Part shown: one piece after another, positions 8,383 to 38,370 of the stretch
Layout: each line of letters opens with the position of its first letter
Position numbering within the stretch: position 1 is the stretch's first letter
From: Buxus sempervirens
Taxonomy: Eukaryota > Streptophyta > Magnoliopsida > Buxales > Buxaceae
Direction: 5' to 3'
DNA: 64,000 nucleotides
Assembly (NCBI GenBank): GCA_947561395.2
Contig: OX387190.1
Coordinates: 11,588,858 to 11,652,857, forward strand
Program-made: the position numbers and the translations under genes
Notes under the pieces: generated by a model
Told to the model about the DNA's origin: nothing
What the model saw: the letters and a program-made list of their open reading frames with translations, nothing else
Databases searched by the model: none

Positions 8383-8433
<51 letters not shown>

Positions 8434-18141: not shown

Positions 18142-18150
18142 TATGCTTGC
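18142..18150. other. Left target-site duplication of the giant MULE
   Basis: TATGCTTGC, identical to 38362-38370. Confidence 0.95.
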
Positions 18151-18340
18151 GCGCTCGGATCCTCTATGAAGCGCATCCTCTGTGAAGCAACGCATCGTCT
18201 GTGAAGCGCAATCCAACGGACCAGAATAAGCGAAGGGTAGTAGCGTAATTTTGGACGAAACGTTTAAAAAACTATTAAAATTCTCCTCGGCTTTGTCCTC
18301 GGCAATCTCCTCGTCTCGATGAAAACGTGCGAAACATATT
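18151..18340 (+). repeat. Left terminal inverted repeat of the giant MULE
   Basis: It matches the reverse complement of 38361 to about 38185. It opens with three near-tandem copies of a roughly 18-21 bp unit, ATCCTCTGTGAAGCGC (about 18159-18209), which are also present in the other end. Repeated units at a MULE terminus are plausible transposase binding sites; this is inference. Weaker similarity extends to about 18570, including GGGACCACCAC. Confidence 0.93.
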
Positions 18341-18418
18341 ATTTAATTTGGGATCCTCTCCACGTCCGCAACGTGCGAAACATAATATTATTTAATTTAG
18401 GATTCTCTCCACGTCCGC
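18321..18418 (+). repeat. 49-bp tandem duplication inside the left end
   Basis: ACGTGCGAAACAT, then TATTTAATTT, then CTCTCCACGTCCGCA occur twice in a row. The right terminus has a single copy of this segment, so the duplication arose in the left end only. Confidence 0.85.
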
Positions 18419-18669
18419 ACCTTACCCGACATTTCTGGACCTTCTTCGTCTTCGTCATCCTCATCGCATACAAAAGGGACAGGATCATACTCCATTTGCT
18501 TCACAGAGGTTTCCCTTTCTTACAAACGCGCGCGCCCACTTGACGAAAGAAAGGGACCACCACCATCACAAGAACTTCGTAAGCGAGGGACCACCACGAC
18601 AGCCACCAGCCTCATTGAAAGACGACTGTAAGCCCTGATTTAATTTTATAATATAATGACCAAATGTAT

Positions 18670-19640
18670 ACATAAGGAGCCATGGGTACCAGGCGAAATA
18701 AGCCAAAGGTACTGCTCCAAATAACGATGGGTACTTGCCGAGTTAAGCTTTAGGTACTCCCGAAGAGCTCCCAAAAAACATTTTCGTAGTCAACAAATAA
18801 ACCTATGGTACCCTCCAAATAAGCATTAGCTAAATCCCCATTTAATTCACAGGCACCCCCAAATAAAGTGTAGGTACCCCCAGTCAAATAACCCATACGT
18901 ACGCCCCACAAATCAGATTAAGGTATCCCACTCTAAGCCCAAGGTATCGCATATAAGCCTAAGGTACCTCCCATATAAACCTAAGGTACCCCATGGTAAG
19001 CCAAACCCACTCACCGAAATTAGCCTAAGGTATCCCCTAAACCTACAGTACCCACAATATAAGCCCAAGGTATCCCCAATATAGGGCTAAGGTACTTCCT
19101 GAAATCGTGATTCGGCGATTTGTCCTAAGACCTAATCGCTACGAAACAGAGACAATGTTTCACTGCTTACAGTTAATCGCAAATCCGCGATTAGTCGTCT
19201 GATTAATCGCCACACCTAATCGCCAGGTGACGATTAATCCTGTACTTAATCGTGATGAAAATCTTGGGAAGTAAGGCTTAGATTCCTCTCCCCTCCCCAA
19301 TTAATTCATAATTGGTGGGTTACCCAAGGCTTATGGGGCTGGTACCTAAGGCTCACTTGTTTGTACCAAAGCATTTTTGGGGTGTACCTAGAACATTTTT
19401 TGGGGGTTGGGGGGGGGGGGGATATTTGGGGATACCCAAGGCTTATTTGTGGGGTACGAAAGCCTTATTTTGTTGGGGGTACCTAAGGCTTAATTGGGTT
19501 TTGGTAAGCCAATTTGTAGGTGTAGGTAAACCAATTTAGGGGGCCTATTTGTGGGTACCCAATTCTTATTTGTGGGGTACAAAATGCATATTTGTGGGGT
19601 ACGTAAGGCGTATTTCAATTTACATTTTGATTTTATAGAT
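18670..19640. repeat. MULE repeat cassette 1: GGTACC units around a CGATTAATCG-type core
   Basis: At 18670-19090 there are more than ten units of the type AAGCCTAAGGTACCCC. At 19100-19260 there is a cluster of CGATTAATCG-like sequences (GCGATTTG, TAATCGC, CGATTAGTC, GATTAATCGCC). At 19310-19640 the GGTACC unit returns in the opposite orientation (GGTACCTAAGGCTTATTTGG). The cassette lies between the left terminus and the protease gene. Confidence 0.88.
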
Positions 19641-19704
19641 GGCACATATAAATAGTCACATTGAAAAGTTTTTTTTTTATCAATTTGTGTATTTATTTGT
19701 AGAT

Positions 19705-22700
19705 AAATGGCACCAAGCGGGGAAGGAGTTCGCAATAGATGTAGTCCTCAATGACTGCTAAAAATTATCGAAAGGTTGAACGAGTCCCAGAGGCTAGCTG
19801 TTAGAGAAATTGGGCTGGGAAGCCTTCTTGATATGACGATTAAACACTGTTATAAGGGCAACATTGTGTCCTTATTGGCTTCATTTGATCCCGATAAATG
19901 TTGCCTTGAAGTAAGCGGAAGGACGTTTGATATATCACCTCCTGATGTTAGCGGATATTGGGGGTGACCTCTGCCGGGGAGACTATAGAAATCGATGAGG
20001 TGGAAAATGACCTCACAGAATTAAAGAAAATGTATTGTGATGATAAGGGTAAGATACCTTTAGGAGAGCTGGAGAGAAGACTGCAAGAGAAGGAGACGGC
20101 GGATGAAGATTTTTTGAGGCTTTTTGTATTGTTTGCATTGGGCTCATTTTTATGCCCTCAAGCTAAGCCGGAGGCCAGCACAAAGTTCTTAAATCTCATA
20201 ATGGATATGGAGGGACTCTGTACCCTCAACTGGTCGAAGTTGGTTCTTGATTGGCTCATTGCCGCAATCCGCCGATACAAGGAGAAGCATCAAATATATG
20301 TCGGTGGTTGTTTGGTTTTTCTAAAGGTAAATTATTGTTATACACACATCTCATATATTTGGTATGCTTAAATTGTAATGGAAGAAATGTTTACTCAATC
20401 GCAGATGTTCTATTATGAATGTTTACGCATTGATGGGAGCGCGATAGAGTTTGATGCAACAGCTCCTCTCATCACCATGTGGAATGATGAGGATGTGTTG
20501 GAGAGGGAGAAAGAAGGAAAAGAAAAGGACATGAAAACTCCGGAACATATTGAATATGAAAATGTTCCGGAGTCCGATAAATCAAAGGGGAGGAAGAAGG
20601 TATATTATATTATATTGTATTTATATTTTCGAATAGGGGGTACTCAATATCAATATTCATTATACGTACATGGACATAAATTTTACTTGATTGTGTGTTT
20701 TAGCAGGATAAATTGAGGGCAGCGATAAAGAAGCTAACGAAGGTAGTTGCTGCCCTTCAGCGTGAGGTAGCCTAATCCCCGAGACTGAAGGCTTTGGAGA
20801 AGGAGGTAATGGAAATCGGTTTTTGTCATTATTCATTATAAGTTCCAGATCTTATAGAAATGCAAATGTTTGTGGCTTGATTTGTTTAGGTGGAGAAATT
20901 GAAGTTGATGATAAGCAATCTTGAAGTAGGGCAAGCTGAATTAAGAGAGATGGTTCTCGAGCTTTTTGGATATGCTCGTGACTACCGAAGCTACTCTGCC
21001 CCTGAATGTCCACGTGAACCATTTGAGGTTCTAATGAACGTTGCTTCTGCACCGGAGGGCCCTTGCCCAGTGTAACCAATGGAAGATATTGAACCTAGGG
21101 TGGAATGTATCCCGGATCCAACAGCGGGAGAATATGAAGGGTCAATCGTTCCATTTCAACCCGTTGAAGCTCCGAGATTGGAACGAATAAAGATGCCCGG
21201 CAAGGCAAAAAGGAGTCCTTTTACAACCATCACCGGGGAAAAAAAGAAGAGGGCCAGAAAGAGTAAGCAACCGCTCGATGCCGAGAGGCCAACGCAAACG
21301 GTAAGTAATATATAATTGGATGTCTAATTGCATGTCAACCATTCATGTAAAACTTTACTATAGTAGATTGAAGAGCAAAATTGTCGATGTAATGATCGTG
21401 TGACCTACATGAAATATATTTCAGGTACCATCTCACGATGATGAACCTGCGGAGGCTAGGATGTTGCTGGATCTGAACATTGCAAATCCGGCCATACAGC
21501 CATTGGTATGTTTGTTCTCAGTTTTTCTAAAGGAATTGTTTTTTGTTTTTCGGTTAGAATTAGGTTGATAGCCATATATTCATTTTTTGGAATTTTTAAT
21601 AAACTTGTAGGCAAGCGAACCACTGGAGGCATCTTCTAGTAGGATTCCGGTGGATGCTGGATGTGCGGTCTGCAACTATGCATTCCGTGAGGACCTCGAT
21701 CTAGAGTACGTACTTTCGCATATTTATGTTTGACGCGTTGTTTCTTTGTAAATTGTTGCGTATGGTTTGACTGTTTCTTTTGTGTGATATATATGTAGCG
21801 AGGTTTTGGTGAGATTCTTCGATATCTTCATTGCCCGCAGTGAGTTCTAGTGTTTGAAGCCTAAGAAATGGGTTACCAACTGGGTAGGAGTCTAACAACC
21901 TAAGTATCTTGTCAGATCGCATAAATATTTGGATTCTTAGATTTTATTTTTTTCTATGTAGATCTTGGATTGCTACATGCGGATGCTGAATTTCCAGGAA
22001 CAGCAGGTTGGAGGCCCATGTTACTTCTTCCTGTCAGATTTTGGGGTAATTATTACGACATTCTTCAAAATCATTTGACACTGTCTGTAATACTCCTGTT
22101 GAACTTATATTATAACTTTTCAGAATTTTTGCGCGGCAGAAGAAAACCGAGAACTTACCAGACTTAATGATCAATTTGATCCATCGTACCTACTGAATAT
22201 AGTGAACTACAAAATGGTAAGCTTAACTCACCATTGTTGCTGGGATCTTTTAATAGGGTAGGGCTAATAAATATGTTTGTATGCAGTTGTTTTTCCCTAT
22301 ATTGGAGCAAGAACATTGGTACATGTGTGTTGTTGACATGAATAAGAAGAAAGTATTTTTTTTGAACTCGATGAAGGTGTGGAGAACCCGCGAAGTTCTC
22401 ACTGGAGTGGTAAGTGATCAGCGTAATAATTTCTTGTGTCACTAATGTTGTTATTAAGTATCAATTTTTATATTTAAGCTAAAAGCAGTAGATATTATAT
22501 GCACCTGGCAATGGGAAAAGGAAGTTTTAGTAAGCAAATTTCCAAGGACGAAAGCAGAGACTCTTAAGCTTACTCGGCAAGACAACCCGTATGTTTTCCA
22601 CCAATACTATCTTTTCTATCCTTACTACGATATGATATTAATAGCATTAACTTTTAATCACATCTTTTGTAGCCATGACTGTGGAATCTTCGCCATGAAG

Positions 22701-22932
22701 TTCGCCGCTTACTGGAGAGGAGAACTTTCTCCTCGATTCACGCAGGTATGCTACAACTCCTAACCTATCCAGTTGTGTTTTCAAAAGCTCCAAATGATCA
22801 CATGATTAATATAGTTTTGTTATTTTTGAATAGAATGATATTCCGAGCTTCAGAAGAAGCATTGTGAGTGAGATGATCCTCCACGAAGAAAACACGGTGA
22901 AGGATGATATTGTGAAGAAGAGTTCTACCTAG
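19705..22932 (+). pseudogene. Ulp1-like (C48 family) cysteine protease gene of the MULE, multi-exon, broken
   Basis: About eleven exons with plausible GT-AG borders run from MAPSGEGVRNRC (ATG at 19705) to a TAG at 22930-22932. The N-terminal part (LGVTSAGETIEIDEVEN to KEKHQIYVGGCLVFLK, 19960-20326) is typical of transposon-linked Ulp1 proteins. The protease domain is at the C-terminus: QEHWYMCVVDMNKKK carries the catalytic His, followed at the expected spacing by LNSM, where families usually have Asp. Further on, TRQDNP then HDCGIFAMKF carry the oxyanion Gln and catalytic Cys six residues apart. Ulp1 enzymes cleave SUMO or ubiquitin-like tags. Damage: TGA early in exon 1 (about 19750), a one-base frameshift near 19950, TAA at 20773-20775, TAA at 21073-21075 and a TAG near 21848. 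The Asp-to-Asn change may or may not abolish activity. Confidence 0.85.
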
Positions 22933-24241
22933 GGGGAGGGTTCGATGTATTAACATTTTTATATTATACATGCGTCAAACTAAAATTTAATTTTTGGGGA
23001 ATCTGTATGTATTTATTTGAGAACAAGGATGTTCCTGTAATGAATGCTGTAGCTGAATCAAGCATTCACTTGGATTTTACTTTTATGGCATGTTTAGTTT
23101 TTTATGATGTTTCACGATCAGATTTTTGTAAAGTATTGTGTACATAGGACATTGTATCCATTGAATAAAAGCTTGGTTATTTTGATTCCATAAGTTCTGC
23201 CACAGATTCGTCAAACTCATTGATCGTCAATTACGCCAAATTTTAAAACAAGTTACTATACATTAGGTACTCCCCCCCAAAACAAAATGAAGGTACGGTT
23301 CGTGTGAAGGGTAAGGTAACCCCCTAACCAGCACAATGTACCACCCCCACCCCATATAAGCTTAGGTGTCACCTAGTAAGAGTTGAGTACACGCCGAAAT
23401 AAGGCCAAGGCCCCCACGAAATAAGCCTAATTTACATCAGCAAATAAGCCTAATTTATTTCGCATCATACCGAAAAGTATGATGCGAAATAATGGAAGGG
23501 TACCCCTAAGTAATACCCAGGTACCCCCAAAATTAATATTAAGGTAACCCATAAGTAAGCCGGAGGTACCCCCAAGTAGGAATTGATAATGAATAAAACG
23601 CACGGACGTTAATCATTAACGCCTGCGCGTTGCAGCTTTAAAGTGCACAGTACGCGCGAGCGTTACTAGGAAACATTCGCGCGTTGAATGTGCTCCCACT
23701 ATTTCGTACGTGTGGGTACCTTCGGTTTTCTTGTGGGGTACCTTAAATTTACCTTTGGGGTACCTAAGTGTTACTTGGAGGTACTCTCCCCTTAATTTGG
23801 AGAATTTTTTGTGGATAAATTAAGGCTCGTGTAGGGGGTACCCTGGGCTGATTTGGGGGATACGTAGGCACATTTGGAAGGGTATCTCAAGATTAATACG
23901 TAATATAAGCTGACTTTTTTTGCATTCCCCGTCTTCCCACAGCCTTCGTTGCAGATTTTAATCATTTCGTATAATACCTTAGTCTTATAGGTGGAAGTTC
24001 ATTACCATAGGCTAATATAACCAGCACCTTGGACTGGTTGTTTTGCATGTACACGCATTACGACGTGATAGACCCAATGTGTGTGTATTGGGGAGATAGA
24101 GGAATATGACAAATGAAAGCTAAGACCTAACAATATTTTCTTTGCATGCACTTATCGCAACGTTTTACAGGCACATAAGTAAAAAAAGATGGTCAAATGA
24201 GATGCATTCGATACTCAAATGACATGAAAAGAGGTTCAAGA
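22933..24241. repeat. MULE repeat cassette 2 between the protease and the first transposon-protein gene
   Basis: After about 300 bp of unique DNA, 23260-23590 holds units with GGTACCCCC preceded by AAGCC or TAAGG. At 23600-23690 lies an AACG...CG-rich core (CGCACGGACGTTAATC, ACGCCTGCGCGTT, CATTCGCGCGTTGAA). At 23700-23900 the GGTACC units are in the opposite orientation. About 23900-24240 shows no feature. Confidence 0.85.
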
Positions 24242-25968
24242 CTATGGGGCAGGCCCTGCTGGATCAGGAACTTTGTGTGCAGGCTCAAGGGATTCAAGCA
24301 ACAAATGTTCATCTCGAATGTACTCCGCATCACTTGGAGGAATATGCTCTCCAACGACACCTTGAGAAGCTGCATCGACAACTGTCCTCTGTTCTCTCCT
24401 GTCCCTATTCAGCATGTGAAGCTCCTGATTTTCCAATTCAAAGTGCTTCATGGCCCGGCTGTAGTCTTGTTGCATCTCCAAATATATCTCGTTCAGCCTG
24501 GTCTGCTTCTCATGCACTGCTTTTAGTGTGTCATCAGCATTCCATACTGTTGTCCTCACCCAATTCAACTTGGTGTTAATTTGTGCAAACTTCGGCTTAA
24601 TCAGTTCTCGTACGTCCTTTTTCGTAGAGTAGGTGTCACCTTCTATGTTCTGAAGAAGATGTTCCATCTTAGCAACGTGGCGATCAGTTTCATGCTTGTA
24701 TGCAAGCTGACCATCGTACAATTGTTTTATCTGCTGCTTCATCGTCTCCTGGTTCTTAAGAAGTAGCTTGGTTTGATTCATCAACTCACATTGCATGCCC
24801 ATAACCTGTGAAAGGATTGATGCGAGTCCACAAGGAAATTGGGAAGAAGTTGTTTGGTCTATAGGAGCAGCAGCAGGAGCAGGCGTCGATGAGGATGGAA
24901 TATCAGGTTCCATAGGTTGATCATGTGTAGCAGACTCCAGGAGAGGAAGATCATGCTCATGTCCTATAGAAACATTGGGGGGAGGAGATGGAGGAGCAGG
25001 AGCATCTTCACCAGCAGGGGGAGGAGATGGAGGAGCAGGAACATCTTCACCAGCAGGGGGAGGAGATGGAGGAGAAGGCGCATGGACCCCTGGAACAGGG
25101 GGAGGGGTGGAGGAGGAGGATGAGACTTGTTGTATTGCCCTTTGGACTTATTATATGTTGCAGTACTGATAGGAGGAAGGGGAGCAAGTAACTCATACTC
25201 GGGGAAGTCAATTTGATGCATCTTGACTATCTTTGCAATGGCACACCCGAGAGGAAGTCCACACCTATGTTTGGTATCGAGAAAACAGTCAAGTATAGAC
25301 GAAATCATGATGGTGGGAACATCAAATGAATGCCTCTTGACCAATGCATAAAGCCAGAGTGCTCTCATAGGAGGCACAGTTGATCTGTGACTCACCGGCG
25401 CAAGGTTAGAGCATTGGATTTTGTATATGAATGAGGTGTCAAATGTAAACTTGGAGGAATCCAGAGCTTTGCCCTCATAGTCCCCCTCCCGCTCAGTGGT
25501 CAGTAAGCAAGCAGCCACTTCATTGAGCAAATGTGGTAAGGGAGCATCAACATACGGGAATTCAGGATTTTCAACTCTCGGAATACCTAGGGCCCCAGCG
25601 ATGGTATCAGAATCTACATGGATGGGCTGCCTTCTGAGAGAGGTATCGAAGGATGCGGGACCGTCTGCGATGTTGTGGATGTTTGAATAGAATTCATATA
25701 CTAGGTGTTGGGATGGGAGCAGGAAGTTGGTGAAGAGGTTATCCCATCCTCTCCCGGTAAATGCTGCACGAATAGACTCGGGGAAGTCTTCTAGAATAAC
25801 CCCTCTTTCAAGCAAGATTTGTCTGTGGCTAATATTATTCTCATACAGCTTCTTGGCCTTCCGATTGATGAAGATTGAATTATCAAATGAATGAGTCCTG
25901 GGTTTCTTATTGGCTTTCCTGGAGGATGTCTTAGGTTTAGAAGATGAGGCTCTGGTCTTAGGGGCCAT
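24242..25968 (-). pseudogene. Plant transposon protein A, coiled-coil C-terminus, one frameshift
   Basis: The reading frame starts MAPKTRASSSKPKT with a basic, Ser/Lys-rich tail. A conserved globular region follows (about residues 30-275), with ESIRAAFTGRGW, TIAGALGIPRVENPEFPY and VPPMRALWLYALVKRH. It resembles the 'putative plant transposon protein' domain found in many plant elements. Next come a proline-rich linker made of three roughly 42-bp repeats (24975-25080, encoding PAPPSPPPAGED in one frame) and a coiled coil rich in Gln, Glu and Lys (24242-24850). The N-terminal frame and the linker/coiled-coil frame differ by one base near 25090-25110, in a C-rich run. Read across that point the protein is about 575 residues. 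The function of this family is unknown. The gene lies on the strand opposite to the protease. Confidence 0.75.
24975..25085. repeat. Three 42-bp tandem repeats encoding a proline-rich linker
   Basis: GGAGGAGATGGAGGAGCAGG, then AACATCTTCACCAGCAGGG, occurs three times with small changes. Confidence 0.9.
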
Positions 25969-26868
25969 CTAAGAGTTCAGAAGAAGAGAGGAAGAAAAAT
26001 AAATATGCACAAAACAACACAGAGCAAACGATAATGTTAGACACAGAAAAGATGAGTGCTACCGAATGCAAATAATATAGAATGTGAATAATATGAATAA
26101 TTGTGTGGAAAAAAACCCACTCCCTATATACATAAAAAAAACCCCAACACTTGAGGAAAAAGTGCAGGCGTTATTCACGCGTTAGGGAGATAACAATAGG
26201 GATGTGTACTTGTCAAAGGCTTATAGGAAAAGTGAATAGTAACTTGATTACAACCGATAATATAAACCATTCCGACAAAGATAAAGCAAAATGTACCTCT
26301 TCAAGACATTAGAATAAACACATAGATCGGAAACCCTAAATGAAAAAATTAATACCCTAATCGTAACATATAAAATCAAAGCAGTAAAGTTCGTAAAGCA
26401 TCTTGTACGTCCTTCGAACCAGAAATATAGGCTTTGGAACTCTTTGAGAAGAGAATGAAGTGGTACCCATCCTGAGAAGACTTTATCGAAATGAAGATGA
26501 AGCGCTTCGGATGGCTTTGATTCGCATGGACGAAATAACGCGCTAGACCTGTTTCTTTGGACATATAGGCAAACGCCCGGACGCACGTGCCCAGAACGTG
26601 CGCGCGTTGATATTAAATATGTGTACAAACATAGGGAATTTTTCAAAGGGTACCTTCCGTTTATGTTTGGGGTACCTCAGGAAAAATGTGGGGATACCTC
26701 ATGTAAAAAAGCGGGGGTACCCAAGCCCAAAGCGAACGTCCGAGCGTTCACGAGAACGTGCGCACGTTGATATTAAATATGTGTCGTATCTAGGGCCTCT
26801 TTAACTTTTTTAAAGGGTCTCAACGGGTTTTTAAAGGGTCCCTTCGGTTTTTTAAAGGGAACCTTCGG
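25969..26868. repeat. Spacer with early cassette elements of the MULE
   Basis: No gene is recognised. Two near copies of AGAACGTGCGCGCGTTGATA, then TTAAATATGTGT, occur at about 26590 and 26754. GGTACC units lie at 26640-26725. Short TTTAAAGGG units run at 26800-26865. A small open frame at 26248-26646 (minus) has no recognisable domain. Confidence 0.6.
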
Positions 26869-26869
26869 T

Positions 26870-27392
26870 TTATGTTGTGCACACATGTATGTACATTTGT
26901 ATATGTGTGTACACATGATTGTACACATGTGTGTACATGTGTACACATGTACATGTATATATGTGTACACATGTACATGTATAAATGTGTACACACGTAT
27001 ATGTTCTTGTACGTGAACATGTACATATATGTGTACAGATGTACACACAAAATGTACATCTGTACACAGATGTACATGTACTTGTGTGTGTACAAATGTA
27101 CACACATGTACTTGTGTACACATATCGACATGTGTACTTGTGTACACATATATACATGTACATGTGTACACATGAACATGTACCTGTGTACACACATGTA
27201 AATGTGTACATGTGTGCACATATACACATGTGTACATGTGTACATGTGTACACAGATGACAATGTGCATGTGTACACATGTACACACATGTGTACACATA
27301 TATACATGTACATGTGTACACACACGTGCAGATGGAAAGGTTCACGTACACATGTTAGTGCACCTGTACATGTGTACACGTGTACATGGATC
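26870..27392. repeat. ACATGT/TGTACA alternating repeat array 1
   Basis: About 520 bp of almost unbroken alternation of ACATGT, TGTACA and TGTGTACAC, largely purine-pyrimidine and self-complementary. It opens in all frames only because the repeat lacks stop codons. Confidence 0.95.
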
Positions 27393-27840
27393 AGGTACCC
27401 AAAGAATTTAGACCAAGGGCACCTCTCAAATAATTCTAAGGTACATCAGCAAATAAGCCAAAGGTGCCCCAAAATGATAACTTACGGTAGCCACAATTAG
27501 GAAGCCAAGTATGTAATAGGTACCCCAAATAACATGTGGGTACCCAAACAATAGTCTGAAGGTAACCCAAACGTAAGGCGAAGGTACCCAATATAAGGAG
27601 TTACTAAGAAACGTTAACGCACGGACGTTAAGGTTCAACGCGCGAACGTTAAAGCCATTAAAGCGCGCGCGTCAGTTGTTTTCTTCAGCTGGAACGTTCG
27701 CGCGTTAGAGATCAACGTCCGCGCGTTGAAGTCGCTTTGCCTTTCCTTCTCTCGGGTACCTTCGCCTTAAAAGCGGGGTACCTTCGTATTATATCCTGGG
27801 GTACCTTAGTTTTAATTGGGGTACCTATTGCCTGTCTTAA
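27393..27840. repeat. MULE repeat cassette 3 (GGTACC units, AACGCGCG core, GGTACC units reversed)
   Basis: 27393-27600 carries GGTACCC units in one orientation. 27610-27745 holds palindrome-like AACGCACGGACGTTAAGG, CAACGCGCGAACGTTAAAG, GAACGTTCGCGCGTTAGA and AACGTCCGCGCGTTGAA. 27755-27835 carries GGGGTACCTT units in the opposite orientation. Confidence 0.92.
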
Positions 27841-27841
27841 T

Positions 27842-28212
27842 ATATGCGTTTGTACATGTACATACATGTGTACACATATATACAAGTAAGCCAGTACACA
27901 TCAAAAAATGTACTTACATGTGTGTAAACAAGTACACACATGTATACGCAGGTATACATGTGTGTGCGTGCGTACATGCACATGTACACACGTATATGTT
28001 CTTTTACGTGTACATGTACACACATGTGTACATATACACACATGTTTACATCTGTTCAAATGCATGTAAATGTACATGTATGTGCACAAATGTACACATA
28101 TGTACATGTGTGCACATATCGACATGTGTACTTGTGTACACATGTACACACATGGGCACATGTGTACATAGATGACAATGTGTATGTGTACACATGTACA
28201 CATATGTACACA
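27842..28212. repeat. ACATGT/TGTACA alternating repeat array 2
   Basis: Same composition as array 1. Its left half (27842-28015) is the inverted copy of part of array 3. Confidence 0.95.
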
Positions 28213-28580: not shown

Positions 28581-28582
28581 GC

Positions 28583-29160
28583 CATGTACATGTGTACACA
28601 TGTATATACGCGTACACACACATGTACATGTACATTTGTTTACACATGTACACATGTGTATATGTGTAAACATGTACATGTATATATGCATAGACATGTA
28701 CACATGTGCACACATTTAAACATGTGTATATGTGCACACATGTACACGTGTGTAAACATGTGCCCATGTGTGTACATGTGTAAACATGTACATGTGTGTA
28801 CACAGGTACATGTGTGTACAGATGTATATGTACATACATGTTTACACATGTACACATGTGTACATGTGCACACACGCATAGATGTGTACACATGTGCACA
28901 TGTGTGTACATTTGTACACACACGTGTACATTTACATCTGTGTACAGATATAGACATGTGTGTACATGTGTACACATGTATGTACATGTACATGTACAAG
29001 AACATATAATTGTGTACATGTGCATATACGCACGCACACACATGTATACCTGCGTATACATGTGTGTACTTGTGTACACACATGTAAGTACATTTTTTAT
29101 GTGTACTGGCTTACTTGTATATATGTGTACACATGTATGTACATGTACAAACGCATATAT
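28583..29160. repeat. ACATGT/TGTACA alternating repeat array 3
   Basis: The longest array, about 580 bp, of the same hexamers with scattered substitutions. The last 170 bp mirror array 2. Confidence 0.95.
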
Positions 29161-29164
29161 TAAG

Positions 29165-29570
29165 ACAGGCAACAGGTACCCCAATTAAAACTAAGGTACC
29201 CCAGGATATAATACGAAGGTACCCTGCTATTAAGGCGAAGGTACCCGGGAGAAGGAAAGGCGAAGAGACTTCAACGCGCGGACGTTGATCTCTAACGCGC
29301 GAACGTTCCGACTGAAGAAGACAACTGACGTGTGCGCTTTTATGGCTTTAACGTTCATGCGTTGAACCTTAACGTCCGCGCGTTAACGTTTCTTAGTAAC
29401 TCCTTATATTGGGTACCTTCACCTTACGTATGGGGTACCTTCAGATTATTGTTTGGGTACCCACGTGTTATTTGGGGTACCTATTACATACTTGGCTTCC
29501 TAATTGTGGCTACCGTAAGTTATCATTTGGGGGCACCTCTGGCTTATTTGCTGATATGTACATGTGTGTA
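29165..29570. repeat. MULE repeat cassette 5
   Basis: GGTACCCC units at 29175-29255, core with AACGCGCGGACGTTGAT, AACGCGCGAACGTT and AACGTCCGCGCGTTAACG at 29270-29395, reversed units at 29410-29550. It is the inverted counterpart of cassette 3. Confidence 0.92.
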
Positions 29571-29820
29571 CATGTGTACACATGCACATTGTCATCTGTG
29601 TACACATGTGTGTATATGTTCACACATGTACGTGTGTGTACACATGTGCCCATGTGTGTACATGTGTACACAAGTACACATGTACATATGTGTAAATTTG
29701 TGCACATACGTGTACATTTACATGCATTTGAACAGATGTAGACATGTGTGTACATGTGCACACATGTGTTTACATGTACACGTAAAAGAACATATACGCG
29801 TGTACATCCACAGACGCATA
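29555..29820. repeat. ACATGT/TGTACA alternating repeat array 4
   Basis: About 265 bp of the same alternating hexamers, with a TGTGTGTACATGTGTACAC period. Confidence 0.93.
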
Positions 29821-29829
29821 TATTAGGGT

Positions 29830-30180
29830 AGGCAACAGGTACCCCAATTAAAACTAAGGTACCCCAGGATATAATACGAAGGTACCACGCTGTTAAGGCG
29901 AAGGTACCCGGGAGAAGGAAAGGCAAACAGACGTCAACGCGCGGACGTTGATCTCTAACGCGCGAATGTTCCAGATGAAGAAGACAACTGATGCGCGCGC
30001 TTTCAAAAGAACCGTTCGCGCGTTGAAGTTTGTTAATAATTGTTACCTGAGCTACCTTCGGTATAAGGGTGTGTACCTGAATGTTTTATTGTGGGGTACC
30101 TATGTTCTACATGCGGTACAGGGGTACCTGTACCATTTTTTTGGGCAAAATTTTTTTTTATGGAGTTCCTTAATCTTTCA
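29830..30180. repeat. MULE repeat cassette 6
   Basis: 29835-29915 is a direct copy of 29170-29260. The core AACGCGCGGACGTTGAT and AACGCGCGAATGTT is at 29936-29970, with CCGTTCGCGCGTTGAAG at about 30010-30030. Reversed GGTACC units occupy 30040-30135. Confidence 0.9.
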
Positions 30181-30219
30181 TTTGTGTGTGTGTGTGTGGT
30201 TACATACGCACACTATGTA

Positions 30220-30545
30220 TCTGAGCCATGTACGCGTGTACACATGTACATGCATATGTACTCATATTTATTCATGTACACGTGAACATGTACAAGTACA
30301 CACGTATATGTTGTTGTACGTGTACATGTACATACCTTTGCACACAAGTACACACATGTGTACATGTGTACATGTGTACACATATACAAATGTACATACA
30401 TGTGATGAGAAGTACACACATGTACCCGTACATGTGCAGATGTGAAGGTTCATGTACATGTGTTCATGCACACGAACACATGAGTACACATGCACACATG
30501 TACCTTTACATGTGCACACGCGTACGTAGTTGTACGTACATCTTA
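30220..30545. repeat. ACATGT/TGTACA alternating repeat array 5
   Basis: About 320 bp of the same repeats, more diverged. It is preceded by a short (TG)n run at 30183-30198. Confidence 0.92.
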
Positions 30546-30574
30546 TGGGTTATGTAACAAATATTTGTATATAT

Positions 30575-31630
30575 AAGGCAGGGTACCATCTTTTAAGCCG
30601 GTGGGGTATCCTCCAGATCAGCCCATTGTACCCCCCATGCAAGCCTTTAGTTCTCCCCAAAAAAATAAGTCATAAAATCAAATATGGGTACCCCCTATAA
30701 AAATCAGGTACTCCCCATGGAAGATTGGGGTACATCGCATTATACCGAAGGTACCTCAGTAACTGCTCTGCGTAGAGAACTTCGACGCGCGGACGTTCTT
30801 CTAAACGCTCGCGCGTTATCTTCTTTTATAGCTTAAACGTTCGCGCGTTGAACTCTAACGTCCGCGCGTTCTCGTTTCAGGGTAATTCCTTTTAATGGGG
30901 TACCTTCGCCTCTCGTATGGGGTACCTTCATATTATTTCTGGGGTACCTACGTGTTATGTGGGGTACCCATACAGTACCTGGCTTTATAATTGTGGCTAC
31001 CGTAAGGCATCATTGGGGGGCACCTTTGGCTTATTTGCTGATGTACCTTAGAATTATTTGAGGGGTGCCCTAGTCGTATTTCTTGGGTTACCTTGCTACA
31101 ACTCTGTGCTATTGGTGCTCTCTTCATGGGGTCACGTTTCGGAAAACTTTGCACAGTACCTTGGGCTTAAGTCTGGGGTAGCTTGGCCTTATTTAGGGGG
31201 GTACTCAGATTTGTATGTATTGAAGCTTCAAAAATACGTGCACATATCTTACACGAGTCACATTCATAACGTGACATGAATGTTATAAACTCTCACATCA
31301 TTCAATCCCTTTCCCATGATTTGTAGACACATTATTATATCATAATAATATAATATTTTCATACAGCAAGTCGCTGTTTCATCAGGGTTAGGTCCCATGC
31401 GTAATCGGAACATGGCGATTAAGCATGCGATTAATCTACTGATTTTTACGACTAATCTTGCGGCCGTATGTATTATTTGTATGCACGCAAGTGAGGGTTT
31501 ATGTTTGAGTGTATAAATAGAGGGTTTCGCTCCACTTCGTACTCACGATTAATCTAGGGTTTCCTACGCATGGGTCCCCTTATTCCACTGTTCTCCTGCT
31601 GCCTCTCGCCTCCAAAGCACGATTAATCTA
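30575..31630. repeat. MULE repeat cassette 7 and a CGATTAATCG cluster
   Basis: GGTACC units in one orientation at 30580-30755, core GACGCGCGGACGTTC, AACGTTCGCGCGTTGAAC and AACGTCCGCGCGTTC at 30783-30870, reversed units at 30895-31215. At 31380-31630 lies a cluster of GCGATTAAGC, GCGATTAATC and ACGATTAATC sequences leading up to the next gene. Confidence 0.88.
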
Positions 31631-31788: not shown

Positions 31789-33084
31789 ATGCCTCGAACA
31801 AAGAATTCTAGCATGCGCCATAAGAGGAGAAGGGATAGGACTCCTGCACCTGCAAGTCCCTCATTATCTTTCGGCTCTCATTACAGCCCTTCTGAGACAG
31901 AGGAACCCAATCCCTCTCAATCTACCATCCACAGGGAGCCTTATTCTCCTGATAATTCATTGTCTGCACCTTCTGAAGCCGAGTAGATTCGGCAGCGACC
32001 CTTGATTGTTGAGAAACCGGTTGTTAAATCATGTTTAGCACCATATGGTATTGTACAGATTCTGGAAGCTGTTGGTTGGTCCGGCATTCTAGATTGGGGG
32101 GATGCTGCCAACTCCTCGACTATTGCTCAACTTTACGCCGGATCCCGTAACTTGTCCACCCCTCCTTTTCGTGAGCTTGCATTTGAGATCAAAGTGGCAG
32201 ACTCTACCTATATTGTCACACCTGACTTGATAAGTGATCTAATGGGTATACCTAGATCAGAGGTCCGTTTCCTGAACCCACCAACGCAAGAGGAACTTGC
32301 TGAGGCCACTCAATGGCTATGTGGGATTGATGCACCATGGAAAAAGACTATGCTTCAAGCTAATCAGCTCTTCCCTACGTATAGAATACTCCATCTCATT
32401 TTCACATTCAATGTCTATCCTAGGTGCGGTAATAAGTTCGAGCTGACCAAGGCCATGGTCTTCCTTCTCTACCGTCTCATTACTCGGACGCGCCTTTGTC
32501 TGCCCACATTCATTTGTAGACATATATGTCAAGTTGTCCATTCATCTGGTCACAGAGCCCTTCCGTTTGCCTATCTTATGACCAGGATTGGGATGAGGTT
32601 TGGTTTACGTGGACCTCCTGATTCCATGGTTATTTCAAGACAATTTTCACAGATGAATCTAAATCAAATGCAACTTGCACCTTTGCACCACCACTGTCAC
32701 GCGGCTCAGAGATCCGGAGAATCAATGGCGCACCAACAGCAGCCACAACAAAGAGAGGAAGCAGAGCCAGCACAACCTTCGTCATCACATCCTCGTCCAC
32801 CCACTTCTCAACCCAGCTCTTTCAAGACATATTCACGATGTGGACCGTCGTCAGAAGCCTTTCGTAGGCTTAGCCAAGACGTTGGAGAGATTCGAGAGGA
32901 TTTAGGCAGTCTACGACGTGATTTTGGAATGTTTCAGGAATCTATCACTCATGGAGTTGGTGGGCTAAAGAAGCTGGTCAAGAAAGCCGTGAAGATAGTG
33001 ACTCATCTCTTCACTTCCTCCAGTCAGCAGACTCCATCCCTCCCACCACTTCCCGGGTCTGATGACGATGACATTGCACCGTAG
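31789..33084 (+). pseudogene. Plant transposon protein B, one in-frame TAG
   Basis: One frame runs from ATG 31789 (MPRTKNSSMRHKRRRDRTP) to a TAG at 33082-33084, broken only by TAG at 31984-31986 after LSAPSEAE. The length is 432 codons. The N-terminus is basic then Ser/Pro/Glu-rich. The central domain (about residues 75-300; ELAFEIKVADSTYIVTPDLI, LMGIPRSEVRFLNPPTQEE) resembles the same plant-transposon-protein family as protein A but is clearly diverged. The C-terminus has a Gln/Pro-rich linker and a coiled-coil stretch (RRLSQDVGEIREDLGSLRRD) ending in an acidic tail, GSDDDDIAP. Shared architecture with protein A (globular domain, Pro-rich linker, coiled coil) suggests an old duplication or parallel acquisition. 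Function is unknown. A single stop could be a recent mutation. Confidence 0.75.
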
Positions 33085-34225
33085 TGTGCTGATTTTAGAC
33101 GTACTTCTATGTTTTGGATATAAATGTATTTATCTCAACGCAACTCAGATGTATAGAATGTATTCATTTCACATAGTAAAAGTATTCGTAATTACAGCAT
33201 CATAATCCTCTGTTGTTTCCATTTGATATAACTTTGTCCATCAATCTACTCCGAATCAGTTCCTTCTTTGAAAATATGATTGGCGTTGTACCATAGGCCT
33301 CATTTGGGGGCTACCTAAGGCATCATTAGGGGGATTCCTTGAGGACAAGGGCATAATTACAGGGAACAAAGTGGTATGTTAGGAAGTAGGAAGAATTTCC
33401 TTCTAACGCGCGGACGTTACGAAGCAACGTTCGCGCATTGAAATCTCAATCACCAATTCGTACTGAAACGTTCGGGCGTTGATATCCCAGGTACGCGCGT
33501 CATGCTATTTGTGCAGAGGGTACCTTGGGCTTATTTGTGGGGTACCTATAGCATGATTGTGGGTACCTAATGCTTAATCTACGGTACCTTAGGTCCAGAT
33601 GGGTGGGTTCTTATTGTTGTTTGAGGGGATACCTTAACTCTTCAGTTGGGGTGTACAAAATATATATATTGGGGGGTTTTGGGAGCCATTATGGGTGGTG
33701 CCTAAGGTAGATAGGGGGTACCTAAGGGTTGATTTTGGATGTACCTGTGTTATTAATGGGGGAACCTTATTTTGATTTGGGATGTACTTGCAAGAGGAAC
33801 AGTAAGAAGCTCTGAAAATATTAACCAATTAACGGAACTAAATAATTAACTCAAAATTGCGATTCTCATTCCACTGGAAGTATACATTTGGTACATACAC
33901 ATCCTTGTACAATTAGAAAAAATGAACACTTACATTGCACTACAAAAACAATATAATTACAGGACTAACACTGTCAACACATTCAATACACACAATTCAC
34001 TCCCCCTTTTTTGTCGTACCAATATACAAAAGAATCACAAATCTCCAGGGAAATGACCTAAATCTCCTTCTTGACGATATAAGCTCCCATCTCGACTATA
34101 AACTCCTGGAGATCTCCCTACAGTAGAGTTTGAATAGGAGCCAAATTGATTCTGGCCAACAGTATTGCTTCAGTTGGATTCTTGGAATATGTTTGGACTC
34201 ATTGATTCCTGTTATTAATGGAATG
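33085..34225. repeat. Spacer with MULE repeat cassette 8
   Basis: 33290-33370 holds GGGGGCTACCTAAGG-type units. 33400-33510 holds the core TAACGCGCGGACGTTACG, AACGTTCGCGCATTGAA and AACGTTCGGGCGTTGAT. 33520-33790 holds GGTACCTTAGG-type units. 33800-34225 shows no feature. Confidence 0.8.
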
Positions 34226-36770
34226 TCATTGCAAAGCATTGAAATTCTTCACAAAGTATTGAAGAGTAGGATCTTCTAGAAAATATACCCGCAATAGCTG
34301 TGTGTAAGTACCAGGTTGTTGGAATGGAGACAAAATTGCATATTCAGCCATAGGATATGTTCTCGATTGCATTCCCGTCACCACTCCATCTGTTCGAAAC
34401 TGATGAGAGGCCTGTGGAATAGATAAAATTCATAAAAAATCAGAAAATCCCCCATAAAACCCTAAACATGATATGATAAAACAAATACATTAGTATGAGG
34501 TAAGTATTATACCATTGTCTCACTCCATCCAGAGCTTTGACTTGCATATTGTGTTTGTGGTGGAGTTTGAGTCTGAATTGTATTTGCTGTTTGAGTTGGT
34601 ATGTCATGGTTCCTCTTCCTCTTTGGAGCCCTTTCTGAAAAATGTTTTGGTCGACGTCCACTATGACCTCGACCCGGCTTCCTCTTCAATCCAGAACGGT
34701 GATTTGAATATTTTCAAATAAATTCTCTCCTTCATTCCCATCCACTGTGTTCGGAGGTTTGTTCTTCAGCACATTTCCAACTTCGGTCATTAAAATGGCC
34801 AGGCCATTCGCAGCACATTCATATGCCTCGAAAGTTTCGGCAGCAATTGCTGATAATTTAACGGCATTATGGCAAAGTTCTCTGTACCGTTTAACCATGG
34901 ACAGCTTTGCCACTTCCTCATCTGACATACGACTATAACTTGGGCTAAAACCCTTTTCATCCTTTGTCCACCGCTTTAATATGTATTGACTTGGGATCCT
35001 CTTAATATTTCGCATGTCAAGTACTTTGAGTGCATGGCTACACAAAATCCCAACAAATTCAAACTTACGGCAACTGCATTTCAACATATCATCATCAGTG
35101 TTAACTGTAACAACATGCCCTCGAGGATTATCAAATAAGCTAACTTTATAGATTTTGGATATCTCAGTATGTGAAGTCTCATTAACAACAAGATTCTGAG
35201 CTTTTGCATATTCCGATTGAAAAATCTCAAACAGCTTCGGTGTGTATACCTCCCTTGCATGCTTTAATATGATGATTTCCGCCATCATTCTTGGAATACG
35301 CTGGCTCATATTATAATTGTCTTCCTGTTCCTTGTAACGGATATCATCCAAAAGCCTTGAAAAATGCTGGAAAAAACACGAGACGTCCATGTTGTATTTC
35401 GTGTATTTCTTTAACCGGCTGTTGAAGCTTTCACTCAGTTGGGTGCTCTTCATGTCAGCACAAAATGTAGTTCTTCCATATACAAGGGCCCATTTCTCCT
35501 TTATCTTAAATATGCCCTTCAGCCACTCATTGTCTTGGAGATCGTATTTTTGAATCATTGCATCCCACGCTTTCAAGAACTCAGCCTCTTCCTCGTAATC
35601 ATATATACACCGATTGAAATCAGATGAAAAGGAGGTTCTCGTTTGGAATACGTGACCGAGATGCTTCAATGAATTTTGGTGCAAATGCCATACACACAAC
35701 CGATGATAGGTGTTCGGCAAAACAAAAGCAATTGCAGCTGACATAGCTGCATCTTGGTCTGTCAAGATGGTAACTGGCCTTTTCCCATTCATTGCCTTTA
35801 TAAATGTTTCAAACAACCAAACAAAGGATGCCTTCGTCTCATCATAAAGCATTGCGGCTCCGAACACTACCATTCGTCTGTGATGGTTGACTCCAACCAA
35901 TGGTGCAAATGGCCTTTGAGCTTCATTTGTCCTATAAGTTGTATCAAAACAAACGACATCTTCAAAATTATTGTAGTCTTCTTGCATCTTCCGATCAGCC
36001 CAGAAAAAGTTTGTTATTTCATTGTTCTCATCAACTTGTACAGCATAAAAGAAAGACGGATCGTCAATCAGTTGTCCTTCAAAATAAATTAATAACCTTG
36101 ATCCGTCTCCTACTTTCATTGCTCTCCATTTGTCACGCATCTAGTTCTTATGGTCAATAGGTAGGAAGCCCAAATTCTCTCTTCCGCCGGCTTCTCTACC
36201 CATGAACTCAAAAGCATGCTTTGGTCGTATGCCACTGCTTTCTGCTAATACAATTTCTGCTAATTGCACCTCTGTAACTTTCCTCTGTGAAGGTAGCATG
36301 TGGGCCTTACTTGGGGTAACAACCTCATGATTATGCTCGTCCTCAAAGCTTGCTACAAAATACATGCCATTGTCTTGAGCTTTCACAGTCATGTGTGCCA
36401 AACAACCCGTACGTGTTTCCTTTCTGGGGTTCTTCACATCTTTATCCCGTTTGTCTGTTCCCTTCTTCCCTTCTTTATAGCAACAAAACTTCCTACACAA
36501 CTCCTTACCATCTTTCCGACTTTTCCATCTCGTACTCTTTCGAATACTGAAGCCCTTCTGTGCTGCATAAGCATTGTAAAATCTATACGCTTCATCGGTA
36601 GATGGGAACTCCATTCCCACGGATGGCCTAAAATTTTGAGTATGCCCTTCGCCGTCATCGAACCTTAGTGCTCTTACAACTCTAGGCACTGTATTTATAT
36701 CCGCTATATCATCACTGACCTCATCTCCACTTAATTGCTCACTTCCACTTGTAGAAATGACTTGCTCCAT
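34226..36770 (-). pseudogene. FAR1/MURA-type Mutator transposase, one in-frame TAG and a late frameshift
   Basis: The protein begins MEQVISTSGSEQ (36770). It has a FAR1-type DNA-binding region (about residues 45-145) with a zinc-ligand pattern ending FEDEHNHEV. The MULE transposase domain has its acidic residues in VVCFDTTYRTN, ILTDQDAAM and the STQLSESFNSRLK segment. A SWIM zinc finger (CSCRKFEFVGILCSHALK) follows, then a basic tail KRKPGRGHSGRRPKHFSE. Exon 1 spans 36770-34513; exon 2 is 34411-34226, ending in TGA. TAG at 36141-36143 interrupts the frame between residues 209 and 211 (DHKN then MRDKWRAMK). A one-base shift near 34690-34705 moves the basic tail to another frame. Transcription runs from the right end inwards, as usual for a mudrA gene near its terminus. 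Without these two changes it would be of family length. Confidence 0.9.
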
Positions 36771-37990
36771 TTGTCCCTACAACATAAAACGGATATTTGA
36801 CTTAGAATATCATACTAATAACAATATATAGTACCCATGAACATCACAAGGTAACCATTCTCTTCAACCATGTGCCAAGTTGGTGTATTTTGAGGGCTTA
36901 TTACAAAACTTGAGTACGTCGGAATAATTTCTTAGTACCTAGACACATGGTACCTACAAATTATTTTTACGGTACGCCAACGGTACGAAGGTGGTACATA
37001 AGTTTTAGACCTTCTTCATTTCCATAGGTTTGGTTAAAATAAGATAGAATATACTGGCAAAAAATAAAGTAAAAAAAAAGACAAAACATGTCTGCGCGAT
37101 TAGCCCAGAGATTAATCGTGAGATCCGCGATTAGAATTTTAAGACACGGATTTTCCACGATTAGTATCCACGACTAATCGCCCAGTCGAGATTATGTCTC
37201 GCGATTAATCTCAAGATTAATCGCGACCTTCCCGATTAACTTTCCAGAGAACATGAAGTCTCTCATCACGATTAAATCCCAGGATTAATTGGCGCCAGGC
37301 GATTTGGGATACCTACAAAAATTTCTTGGGTACCTATGCCTTATTTTGGGGATACCTAACGATTAATTGGGGGTACCTAGGGCATTATTGGAGGTTTTTT
37401 GGTTGGTACCTAAGGCTTGTTCGGGGGTGGTAATGGCTTATTTGACAGCTGTTTATTTCTGGGCGTACCTAAGGTTATTTTGGGGGTGCTTCATTGTTCA
37501 TTTCGGGGGTACCAAATTCTTATTTGACTAGCCTTTTTGTGTGGGTAATGAGTGCTTAATGGGGTTACCCAAGGCTTATTTGGGAGCGTTTTTTTTATAG
37601 GTACCTAAGGGTTGTCCTTGGGTGTACTTATGGCTAAATATGCGTGTACCTGAAGATTAACGTGTACCTTAGGCTTAATTGGGGCTACCTACGACTTAAG
37701 TACACCCAACATGCGGCTTACTTCGGTAGGTACCTATTACTTAATTGGTTGAATCGTAATTACAAATTTATTATCTCCCTTTACTTCTGATTTTTTTTTA
37801 GTACCCCAGGTGTATCATTGAGGATACCACATAGTACCCTGTCGATGTGTGGCGGCGCGGCATTGTTCGCCCGACCATCATTTGAATTTATTTAAGGTTC
37901 CACCATCTTCGGGGGTTGACATTAATGGAAAAAGCCAAAAATCTGTTTATGTACCTGGTTTAGATTGGTTGTTGGAGTCTTAAATAGAAA
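36771..37990. repeat. MULE repeat cassette 9 next to the right terminus
   Basis: 36900-36990 carries GGTACGCCAACGG-like units. 37090-37300 is a dense cluster of CGATTAATCG-type sequences (GCGATTAGCCC, ATTAATCGTG, CGCGATTAATCTC, TCACGATTAAATC). 37310-37740 holds GGTACCTAAGGCTTATTTGG-type units. This mirrors cassette 1 at the other end in content. Confidence 0.85.
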
Positions 37991-38184
37991 CAAATAATGG
38001 TGGAGTGAGTGGTGGTCCCTTCTTCTTTAACACTTGGAAGTGGAACTGTGGTAGCTGCCTTCCTTTTCTTCGAACAGAGAGTAAAGACAGCACCTTTCCC
38101 GCCAATGTCGGAGTAAACATAGAAATGTCTGAGTAAGAACAGAGAAAGTTCGGACGTGGACAAGATTATAAGTTAAATAATATA

Positions 38185-38361
38185 AATGTTTCGCGTGTTT
38201 TCGTCTTGCCGAGGAGACAGCCGAGTAGAATTTTAATACTTTTTTAAGTATTGCGCTCAAAATTACTATTATAACCTTCGCTTATTCTGGTCCATTGGAT
38301 TGCGCTTCACAAACGATGTTTTTGCTTCACAGAGGATGCGCTTCACAGAGGATCCGAGCGC
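38185..38361 (-). repeat. Right terminal inverted repeat of the giant MULE
   Basis: It is the reverse complement of 18151 to about 18340, roughly 80 percent identical by eye. The same tandem motif (GCTTCACAGAGGAT) sits at its outer end. Confidence 0.93.
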
Positions 38362-38370
38362 TATGCTTGC
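38362..38370. other. Right target-site duplication of the giant MULE
   Basis: TATGCTTGC, identical to 18142-18150. Confidence 0.95.

What the first reader, a model, noticed from the sequence alone, without database searches (positions are those of the whole stretch)
18142..38370. A structurally complete 20.2-kb Mutator-like element with four genes
The sequence shows matching inverted ends (GCGCTCGGATCCTCT on both), about 190 bp of clear inverted-repeat similarity, and a perfect 9-bp duplication TATGCTTGC on both sides. Inside are a FAR1/MURA transposase, a Ulp1-like protease and two different plant-transposon-protein genes. Mutator 9-bp duplications and Ulp1-carrying MULEs (Kaonashi, CUMULE) are established. 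The size, the four-gene cargo and the internal cassette design look unusual and may define a new lineage (inference).
Basis: partly seen in the sequence, partly recalled or inferred. Interest (0 to 1): 0.9.

Follow-up and report, generated by a model that had tools for sequence, protein, structure and literature searches.

The report
Giant four-gene Mutator transposon family
This is one decayed copy of a large plant jumping-gene family whose non-coding stretches are packed with evenly spaced repeated sites, which probably let the element's own proteins find it and keep it from being silenced; that use of the sites is inferred, not shown.

Summary
In detail: a 20,211-bp Mutator-like element at 18151-38361 with ~220-bp inverted ends and a perfect 9-bp target duplication. 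It is no one-off. The same genome holds at least 40 close matches to each end and to the transposase gene; 22 same-strand end pairs were found, 11 of them 15-25 kb apart; of 14 pairs checked, 9 have a perfect 9-bp duplication and 3 match at 8 of 9. Two other copies read end to end carry all four genes. The transposase is FAR1/Jittery-type, not MuDR/VANDAL-type; the others are an Ulp1-like gene and two very different PF20167 genes. This copy is decayed; open frames exist elsewhere for three of the four genes.

The 'cassette design' is a grammar: 131 units of a ~22-bp GGTACC motif, and 14-bp palindromes paired 21 bp apart, almost only between genes and inside the ends. The core array is rearranged between copies while the genes stay collinear. 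I read it as a VANC-like docking system for element-encoded regulatory or anti-silencing proteins. Binding is untested; divergence between copies gives no support for constraint on the motifs; and one copy lacks most of two modules. Large MULEs and Ulp1-MULEs are published; this combination looks like a new variant.

The parts
18142..18150 (.). target site duplication TATGCTTGC, left
18151..18368 (+). left terminal inverted repeat, beginning with three 16-bp tandem units; half-boxes AACGTGCG at 18324 and 18370
18670..19618 (.). left subterminal module: 22-bp units pointing to the TIR, a CGATTA/TAATCG cluster (19133-19252), then units pointing inward
19707..22932 (+). Ulp1-like gene, spliced; N part weakly PMD/DUF1985-like (below cut-offs), C part Peptidase_C48 with Asn for the catalytic Asp; stops and a frameshift in this copy
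23260..23900 (.). module M2 between two convergent genes: array (-), tetrad of 14-bp boxes (23597, 23618, 23651, 23672), array (+); fold-back palindrome
24242..25968 (-). PF20167 gene A; one frame shift in this copy; open over 575-578 aa in three other copies
26572..26880 (.). region upstream of gene A with 14-bp boxes and 22-bp units
26876..31200 (.). core: five related modules (M3-M7) of arrays and boxes in both orientations, separated by alternating purine-pyrimidine (ACATGTGTACAC) tracts; rearranged between copies
31402..31625 (.). CGATTA/TAATCG boxes upstream of gene B
31789..33087 (+). PF20167 gene B; one in-frame stop in this copy; open over 431 aa in copy C14
33286..33781 (.). module M8 between two convergent genes: boxes 33405, 33426, 33467 and 22-bp units
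34686..36770 (-). transposase gene: FAR1 domain, MULE domain, SWIM finger, DDE residues; in-frame stop at 36141-36143 and a 1-bp length difference from the other copies
36948..37749 (.). right subterminal module: CGATTA/TAATCG cluster (37097-37274) and 22-bp units pointing to the TIR
38151..38361 (-). right terminal inverted repeat
38362..38370 (.). target site duplication TATGCTTGC, right

Best explanation
A decayed copy of a large family of autonomous-type Mutator-like elements of the FAR1/Jittery kind. Shown: ends, duplications, gene set, copies, motif grammar and its turnover. Inferred: the transposase acts at the ~220-bp TIRs with a 9-bp staggered insertion; the repeated sites are docking sites for element-encoded DNA-binding proteins. 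The 14-bp AACGYNCGNRCGTT boxes, paired two helical turns apart, are most simply sites for the transposase's own FAR1 domain, bound as dimers. The ~22-bp GGTACC arrays are sites for another element protein, either the Ulp1-like gene product or a PF20167 protein. Bound factors would counter DNA methylation and drive the four genes, as VANC does in VANDAL elements, and expansion and contraction of the core array would retune that recognition.
For: Family. Grammar: GGTACC 66 inside and 5 outside (shuffles mean 7.9, largest 18 of 200); 131 units inside, 6 outside; 74 of 101 same-orientation neighbours 20-24 bp apart; 14-bp boxes (up to 2 mismatches) 33 inside, 0 outside, with 21 bp the commonest spacing and again in 7 of 8 other copies read, the eighth having no boxes; 636 exact box pairs in the genome, reversed control 0; units almost absent from coding sequence (1 in 7,241 bp). 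Turnover: core rearranged in the copies whose core was read, while the genes are collinear. Analogy: VANC proteins, which have DUF1985, bind short motifs in same-orientation non-coding tandem repeats that gain and lose units (PMC5735166, PMC10398659, passages); Ulp1-bearing VANC genes are said to act likewise (PMC13317346, passage). FAR1-domain proteins bind CACGCGC and dimerise (PMC6000157, passages); AACGCGC occurs 20 times inside and 0 outside, and half-boxes lie at the inner edge of the left TIR.
Against: No binding, methylation or expression data. Between copies the GGTACC core is no more conserved than spacer (p 0.65) and boxes diverge more (0.065 against 0.031), though equally at non-CpG sites; only the unit tail is slightly less divergent (p 0.02). 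Copy C1a, which has open transposase and gene A frames, lacks window positions about 23234-23846 (most of M2) and 33421-33882 (most of M8), so those two modules are dispensable or that copy is a dead end. The exact CACGCGC site does not occur in the element. The Ulp1 gene's DUF1985 and PMD matches are below Pfam's cut-offs. dN/dS is only mildly below 1 for gene B (0.76) and the C part of gene A (0.91). The arrays also occur once without the four genes.
Confidence: 0.45

Rival explanations
1. The arrays serve transposition: the transposase or an accessory protein binds subterminal and internal sites to bring the ends of a very long element together, with no anti-silencing role (as recalled for subterminal arrays of CACTA/Spm elements).
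For: Both subterminal regions carry units pointing to the nearer TIR plus CGATTA clusters; half-boxes in the left TIR; FAR1 domain on the transposase.
Against: By position about two thirds of the units listed lie deep inside the element, around genes and in the core, where synapsis sites are not needed.
Confidence: 0.2
2. The arrays are neutral: tandem and fold-back duplication of a once functional or arbitrary sequence in a large element, with period and symmetry left by slippage and palindrome formation.
For: No constraint on core motif or boxes between copies; M2, M3 and M5 are fold-back palindromes; the core is a product of duplication and inversion; C1a lacks most of M2 and M8.
Against: Two unrelated palindromic motifs with nearly the same spacing (21 and ~22 bp), near-exclusion from coding sequence, and the same combination with a different unit tail at another locus are not expected of slippage alone.
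Confidence: 0.2
3. The modules are mainly gene ends and promoters, or sources of hairpin RNA that feed host silencing, so they are what the host uses against the element rather than what the element uses.
For: M2 and M8 lie between convergent genes; M2 folds as RNA with z -12; noncoding regions of VANDALs are RdDM targets (PMC10398659, passages); box CpGs decay faster, as in methylated DNA.
Against: Does not explain box pairs at 21 bp; M7 and M8 show no palindrome by BLAST.
Confidence: 0.1
4. A composite: a smaller MULE with later insertions of other transposons that brought the PF20167 genes.
For: PF20167 is reported in an Athila retrotransposon frame (PMC11728184, one passage); genes A and B are only 19% identical.
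Against: All four genes in the same order in both other copies read end to end, and as far as read in C15 and C21; the direct-repeat families displayed are array or module duplicates, with no LTR-like pair around A or B; both genes sit inside the shared grammar.
Confidence: 0.05

Closest known systems
Jittery (maize) and the Jittery group of MULEs (PMC9569675, PMC6446971; passages)
   Same: FAR1 domain + MULE + SWIM transposase with DDE; long TIRs; 9-bp TSD
   Different: The group's table lists one ORF; this element is 20 kb with four genes and large arrays. Tree placement not tested
Grapevine Jitvine-1/2, Mutavine-1 and Mutavine-18 (PMC2528002, section 8)
   Same: Large plant MULEs (11.9, 14.4, 17.7, 16.2 kb); Jitvine is Jittery-like, Mutavine-18 has an Ulp1 region
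VANDAL21/VANDAL6 with VANC (PMC5735166, PMC10398659; passages)
   Same: Short motifs at high density in non-coding repeats that turn over fast, absent from coding regions; VANC has DUF1985, for which the Ulp1 gene here has a sub-threshold match
   Different: VANDALs lack TIRs or have short degenerate ones; here long TIRs and a FAR1-type transposase; function untested
Kaonashi (KI) MULE / KIU genes (PMC2528002, PMC13317346; passages)
   Same: Ulp1-like gene on the strand opposite to the transposase
   Different: KI-MULEs are non-TIR; here TIRs, plus two PF20167 genes
Athila retrotransposon ORF with PF20167 (PMC11728184; one passage)
   Same: Same Pfam domain as genes A and B
   Different: Athila is an LTR retrotransposon; the only database protein found related to gene A was a 225-aa Cephalotus protein, 24% identical

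Membership tests
Mutator-like element (superfamily) | MULE-type DDE transposase | tested here: met
   PF10551 E 7.5e-28; D, D, E invariant in 12 aligned proteins
Mutator-like element (superfamily) | 9-bp target duplication | tested here: met
   window copy perfect; of 14 pairs checked 9 perfect, 3 at 8 of 9, 2 none
Jittery group | N-terminal FAR1 domain with MULE and SWIM | tested here: met
   PF03101 E 7e-27, PF10551, PF04434
Jittery group | TIRs of 39-292 bp in the table, or none (PMC6446971) | tested here: met
   218 and 211 bp aligned
Jittery group | one ORF, as listed for group 36 | tested here: not met
   four genes; Jitvine gene content could not be checked
Jittery group | position in a transposase tree | not tested
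   reference sequences not available
VANDAL (VANC system) | no TIRs, or short degenerate ones | tested here: not met
   ~220-bp TIRs at 79%
VANDAL (VANC system) | VANC protein with DUF1985 | tested here: inconclusive
   DUF1985 23.0 bits, cut-off 35.1; PMD 27.0, cut-off 34.9
VANDAL (VANC system) | same-orientation, dense short motifs in non-coding repeats that expand and contract | tested here: met
VANDAL (VANC system) | binding and sequence-specific loss of methylation | not testable with these tools
   needs EMSA, DAP-seq or bisulfite data
Kaonashi (KI) MULE | non-TIR | tested here: not met
Kaonashi (KI) MULE | Ulp1 domain gene reverse to the transposase | tested here: met
   Ulp1 gene +, transposase -
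Pack-MULE | carries captured host gene fragments, moved by transposase in trans | tested here: not met
   own transposase; other genes bear domains known from transposons and are shared by the family copies read

The most novel reading that the evidence does not exclude
The three-part grammar (22-bp GGTACC arrays, 14-bp AACG palindromes paired at 21 bp, CGATTA boxes) is a self-contained anti-silencing or insulator code that coevolves with its binders and is shared between different plant transposons: at C1:1.70 Mb it stands without the four genes, with the unit core kept but the unit tail replaced throughout the array. It would be read by a FAR1-type transposase together with a VANC-like Ulp1 or PF20167 protein, a second origin or an ancient branch of sequence-specific anti-silencing outside VANDAL elements.
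Probability: 0.15. Interest if true: 0.8.

Novelty: new variant of a known kind. Interest (0 to 1): 0.6.

Why it matters
Sequence-specific anti-silencing by transposons has been shown for VANDAL elements of Arabidopsis (PMC5735166, PMC10398659). A young, abundant family with a different type of transposase and the same kind of fast-turnover arrays, but with two well-defined motifs at fixed helical spacing, would show whether the strategy arose more than once and gives motifs precise enough for direct binding tests. It also offers a link between the FAR1 domain of plant light-signalling factors and the sites that FAR1-type transposases bind in their own elements.

Tried and rejected
Structure of the gene A protein: AlphaFold2 on a 3-row alignment gave mean pLDDT 40 and pTM 0.23; useless, so no fold search was run. 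Protein search for gene B: 0 at E <= 1e-3 among 2327 candidates; for gene A: 1 of 7991 scored. IMG/VR scan for gene A: 5 pattern matches, none a relative. Rfam at gathering threshold: no match in the window. PDB by sequence: FAR1 part none; transposase one weak match to a Mutator family transposase, E 0.0076.

Constraint on the motifs between copies: looked for and not found for the GGTACC core or the boxes. I read the box excess as CpG decay in silenced copies, because it vanishes at non-CpG sites. 'Composite' and 'Pack-MULE' rejected because the gene set is the same in the copies read. Kaonashi membership rejected on the TIRs. 'Size defines a lineage' rejected on published sizes. Not done: transposase tree, calibrated dating, a copy count beyond the 40 scored per search (first-look candidates 440, 385 and 345), a second accession. 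Own-genome searches with gene A DNA, gene B DNA, the PF20167 family and the C1:1.70 Mb sequences were tried but did not complete.
Full report
WHAT IS THERE. Between them lie, left to right: TIR; a subterminal module; an Ulp1-like gene (+); module M2; PF20167 gene A (-); a 4.3-kb core; PF20167 gene B (+); module M8; the FAR1/MULE/SWIM transposase (-); a second subterminal module; TIR. The layout is a rough mirror image: two convergent gene pairs around a divergent core. The window lies in a 676.5-Mb genome.

A FAMILY. Pairing the 40 left and 40 right matches on the same strand within 100 kb gives 22 pairs, 11 of them 15-25 kb apart, 9 longer and 2 shorter, against 1 opposite-strand pair. I checked the flanks of 14 of the 22: 8 show a perfect 9-bp duplication by script (in C1a it lies 2 nt outside the left end), one more (C6) is perfect once its shorter right tip is read by eye, three match at 8 of 9 (C4b, C8b, C19b; read by eye), and two show none (C14, C3). 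The perfect duplications all differ, as expected of independent insertions. Eight other copies were read in full or part: C1a and C14 end to end, with all four genes; C15 and C21 with three genes and part of the transposase; C1m and C19m over the left half; C8m over the Ulp1-like gene and part of gene A; C12b over the leftmost 2.7 kb. Outside the core most long stretches are collinear at about 95% identity, with some indels. The core (about 26.9-31.2 kb of the window) is duplicated, inverted and expanded differently in the copies where it was read.

STATE OF THE GENES. The transposase has the FAR1, MULE and SWIM domains and the D, D and E residues invariant in a 12-protein alignment. In the window copy it has one in-frame stop and is 1 bp shorter than the family sequence, 2091 against 2092 in nearly all listed matches. 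Copy C1a has a 680-aa open transposase frame; gene A is open over 575-578 aa in C1a, C21 and C14; gene B over 431 aa in C14. I did not establish an open Ulp1-like gene. Of the seven window lesions shown (against 2 to 8 other copies each), six are private and one, the first Ulp1 stop, is shared with C12b only. Three of the five stops are C-to-T changes, as in decay of methylated DNA; the other two are not. Pooled pairwise dN/dS: transposase 0.49 (3 copies), Ulp1 C48 part 0.60 (8), gene A N part 0.64 (7), Ulp1 N part 0.65 (9), gene B 0.76 (5), gene A C part 0.91 (8): compatible with past purifying selection diluted by decay, weak for the last two.

THE ULP1-LIKE GENE. Its spliced C part matches Peptidase_C48 (E 3e-15) and SENP2 over 207 residues (E 5e-14). 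The alignment keeps the His, Gln and Cys but has Asn for the catalytic Asp (which residues are catalytic is recalled). It is Asn in all 8 sequences compared, window included: a family feature, meaning either a dead protease or one that works with Asn. The N part gives only sub-threshold PMD (27.0 bits, cut-off 34.9) and DUF1985 (23.0, cut-off 35.1) matches.

THE NON-CODING GRAMMAR. GGTACC occurs 66 times in the 20.2 kb and 5 times in the other 43.8 kb (shuffles of the element: mean 7.9, largest 18 of 200). A 22-bp profile, trained on the element and so biased to it, finds 131 units inside and 6 outside at score 9, against a mean of 4.7 in 10 shuffles. Of 101 same-orientation neighbours within 80 bp, 74 are 20-24 bp apart (mean 21.8). 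Orientations form 22 runs against 65 in shuffles (smallest of 2000: 47). One unit falls in the 7,241 bp of coding intervals listed, which leave out the later Ulp1 exons. A 14-bp palindrome AACGYNCGNRCGTT, a consensus I drew from the element, occurs 33 times inside and 0 outside at up to 2 mismatches (shuffles: mean 1.65, largest 4 of 20); at up to 3 it is 48 and 20. Box pairs are most often 21 bp apart, in several modules as tetrads of about 21/32-33/21. In 7 of the 8 other copies 21 bp is again the commonest adjacent spacing (C1a 16 of 26; C12b has no boxes), while the spacing between pairs varies. The exact box pair occurs 636 times in the genome and its reversed control 0 times. Only the first places were listed, all on one contig: of these 50 pairs, 32 lie within 40 kb of listed family matches, 17 more lie in two clusters that proved to be family copies, and 1 does not. 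CGATTA/TAATCG occurs 24 times inside, clustered near both ends and upstream of gene B, and 17 times outside. 21-22 bp is about two turns of DNA (recalled), so I infer binding on one face.

PALINDROMES. M2, M3 and M5 are fold-back palindromes of about 310 bp at 68-69% identity; M6 has a shorter one; M7 and M8 show none by BLAST. In four of the five modules tested each unit matches its mirror partner better than any other assignment (rank 1 of 24; M7 rank 4); M3, M5 and M6 are related duplicates, so these are not independent. M2 as RNA folds with z -12 (20 shuffles).

MECHANISM. From print: VANC proteins (with DUF1985) bind short motifs in non-coding tandem repeats of VANDALs and remove methylation; the repeats turn over fast (PMC5735166, PMC10398659; passages). 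A 2026 review says Ulp1-bearing VANC genes act likewise (PMC13317346; passage). FHY3 and FAR1 bind CACGCGC through the FAR1 domain and dimerise (PMC6000157; passages). Here AACGCGC occurs 20 times inside and 0 outside, but exact CACGCGC does not occur inside. I propose two docking systems: boxes for the FAR1-type transposase, and 22-bp arrays for the Ulp1-like or a PF20167 protein.

AGAINST IT. Between-copy divergence gives no support for constraint (core against spacer p 0.65; boxes more divergent, equal at non-CpG sites; unit tail slightly less divergent, p 0.02); that comparison may be dominated by decay after insertion, so it weakens but does not refute. Copy C1a, with open transposase and gene A frames, lacks about 23234-23846 and 33421-33882 of the window, that is most of M2 and M8, while its core is expanded. 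No binding was tested.

A SECOND LOCUS. At C1:1.70 Mb (L062-L064), 27 units with the same GGGTACCTTAG core but mostly another tail, boxes spaced 32/21/32/21, and CGATTA boxes stand together; tblastn with the element's proteins finds none of the four genes in the 21 kb read. It hints that the grammar is older or wider than this family.

NOVELTY. Ulp1-carrying MULEs, Jittery-type MULEs and MULEs of 14-18 kb are published (PMC2528002, section 8; PMC6446971, passages). My ten paper searches listed none that I recognised, from titles, abstracts or passages, as describing a FAR1-type MULE with an Ulp1-like gene plus two PF20167 genes, or these arrays. Many plant papers are not in the library, and Repbase could not be checked.

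Noticed in passing
L062 (G000:C1:1699500-1702500), with L063 and L064: Same three motif classes (22-bp GGTACC array with a different tail, 14-bp boxes spaced 32/21/32/21, CGATTA boxes) without the four MULE genes in the 21 kb read; nearest long frame has a sub-threshold BED zinc finger match (E 0.009).
   Followed up: partly
L001-L006 and L007: The exact box-pair pattern also occurs in 6 contigs from Tannerella and Prevotellaceae MAGs and in one IMG/VR contig; in L005 and L007, the two looked at, as tandem 14-bp AACG palindromes every 21 bp. Probably unrelated, but the same spacing is odd.
   Followed up: partly
22287-22409: The Ulp1-like domain has Asn where SENP2 has the catalytic Asp, in all 8 sequences compared.
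   Followed up: partly
26876-30500: Long alternating purine-pyrimidine tracts (ACATGTGTACAC type) alternate with the core modules; self-complementary, possibly Z-DNA or cruciform forming.
   Followed up: no
23234-23846 and 33421-33882: Copy C1a lacks just these two stretches, each covering most of the module between a convergent gene pair, with almost no sequence in their place: possible deletion of palindromic modules.
   Followed up: no
38320-38361: The number of 16-bp tandem units at the TIR tip varies: copies C6 and C19b have a shorter right tip, C6 still with a perfect TSD and C19b with 8 of 9.
   Followed up: no
G000:C4:351041-354247 and G000:C10:8110129-8119331: End pairs only 3.2 and 9.2 kb apart, likely internally deleted derivatives; their interiors were not read.
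   Followed up: no
3887-6183, 7659-9113, 14597-15478: Left flank: CACTA-type transposase frames, a cytochrome P450 in two pieces, and an IRX15/GXM-like gene about 2.7 kb from the insertion.
   Followed up: no
47183-47623, 52267-53037, 55343-57901: Right flank: plant-mobile-domain frames (one also DUF7745) and reverse transcriptase and integrase frames of a retrotransposon.
   Followed up: no
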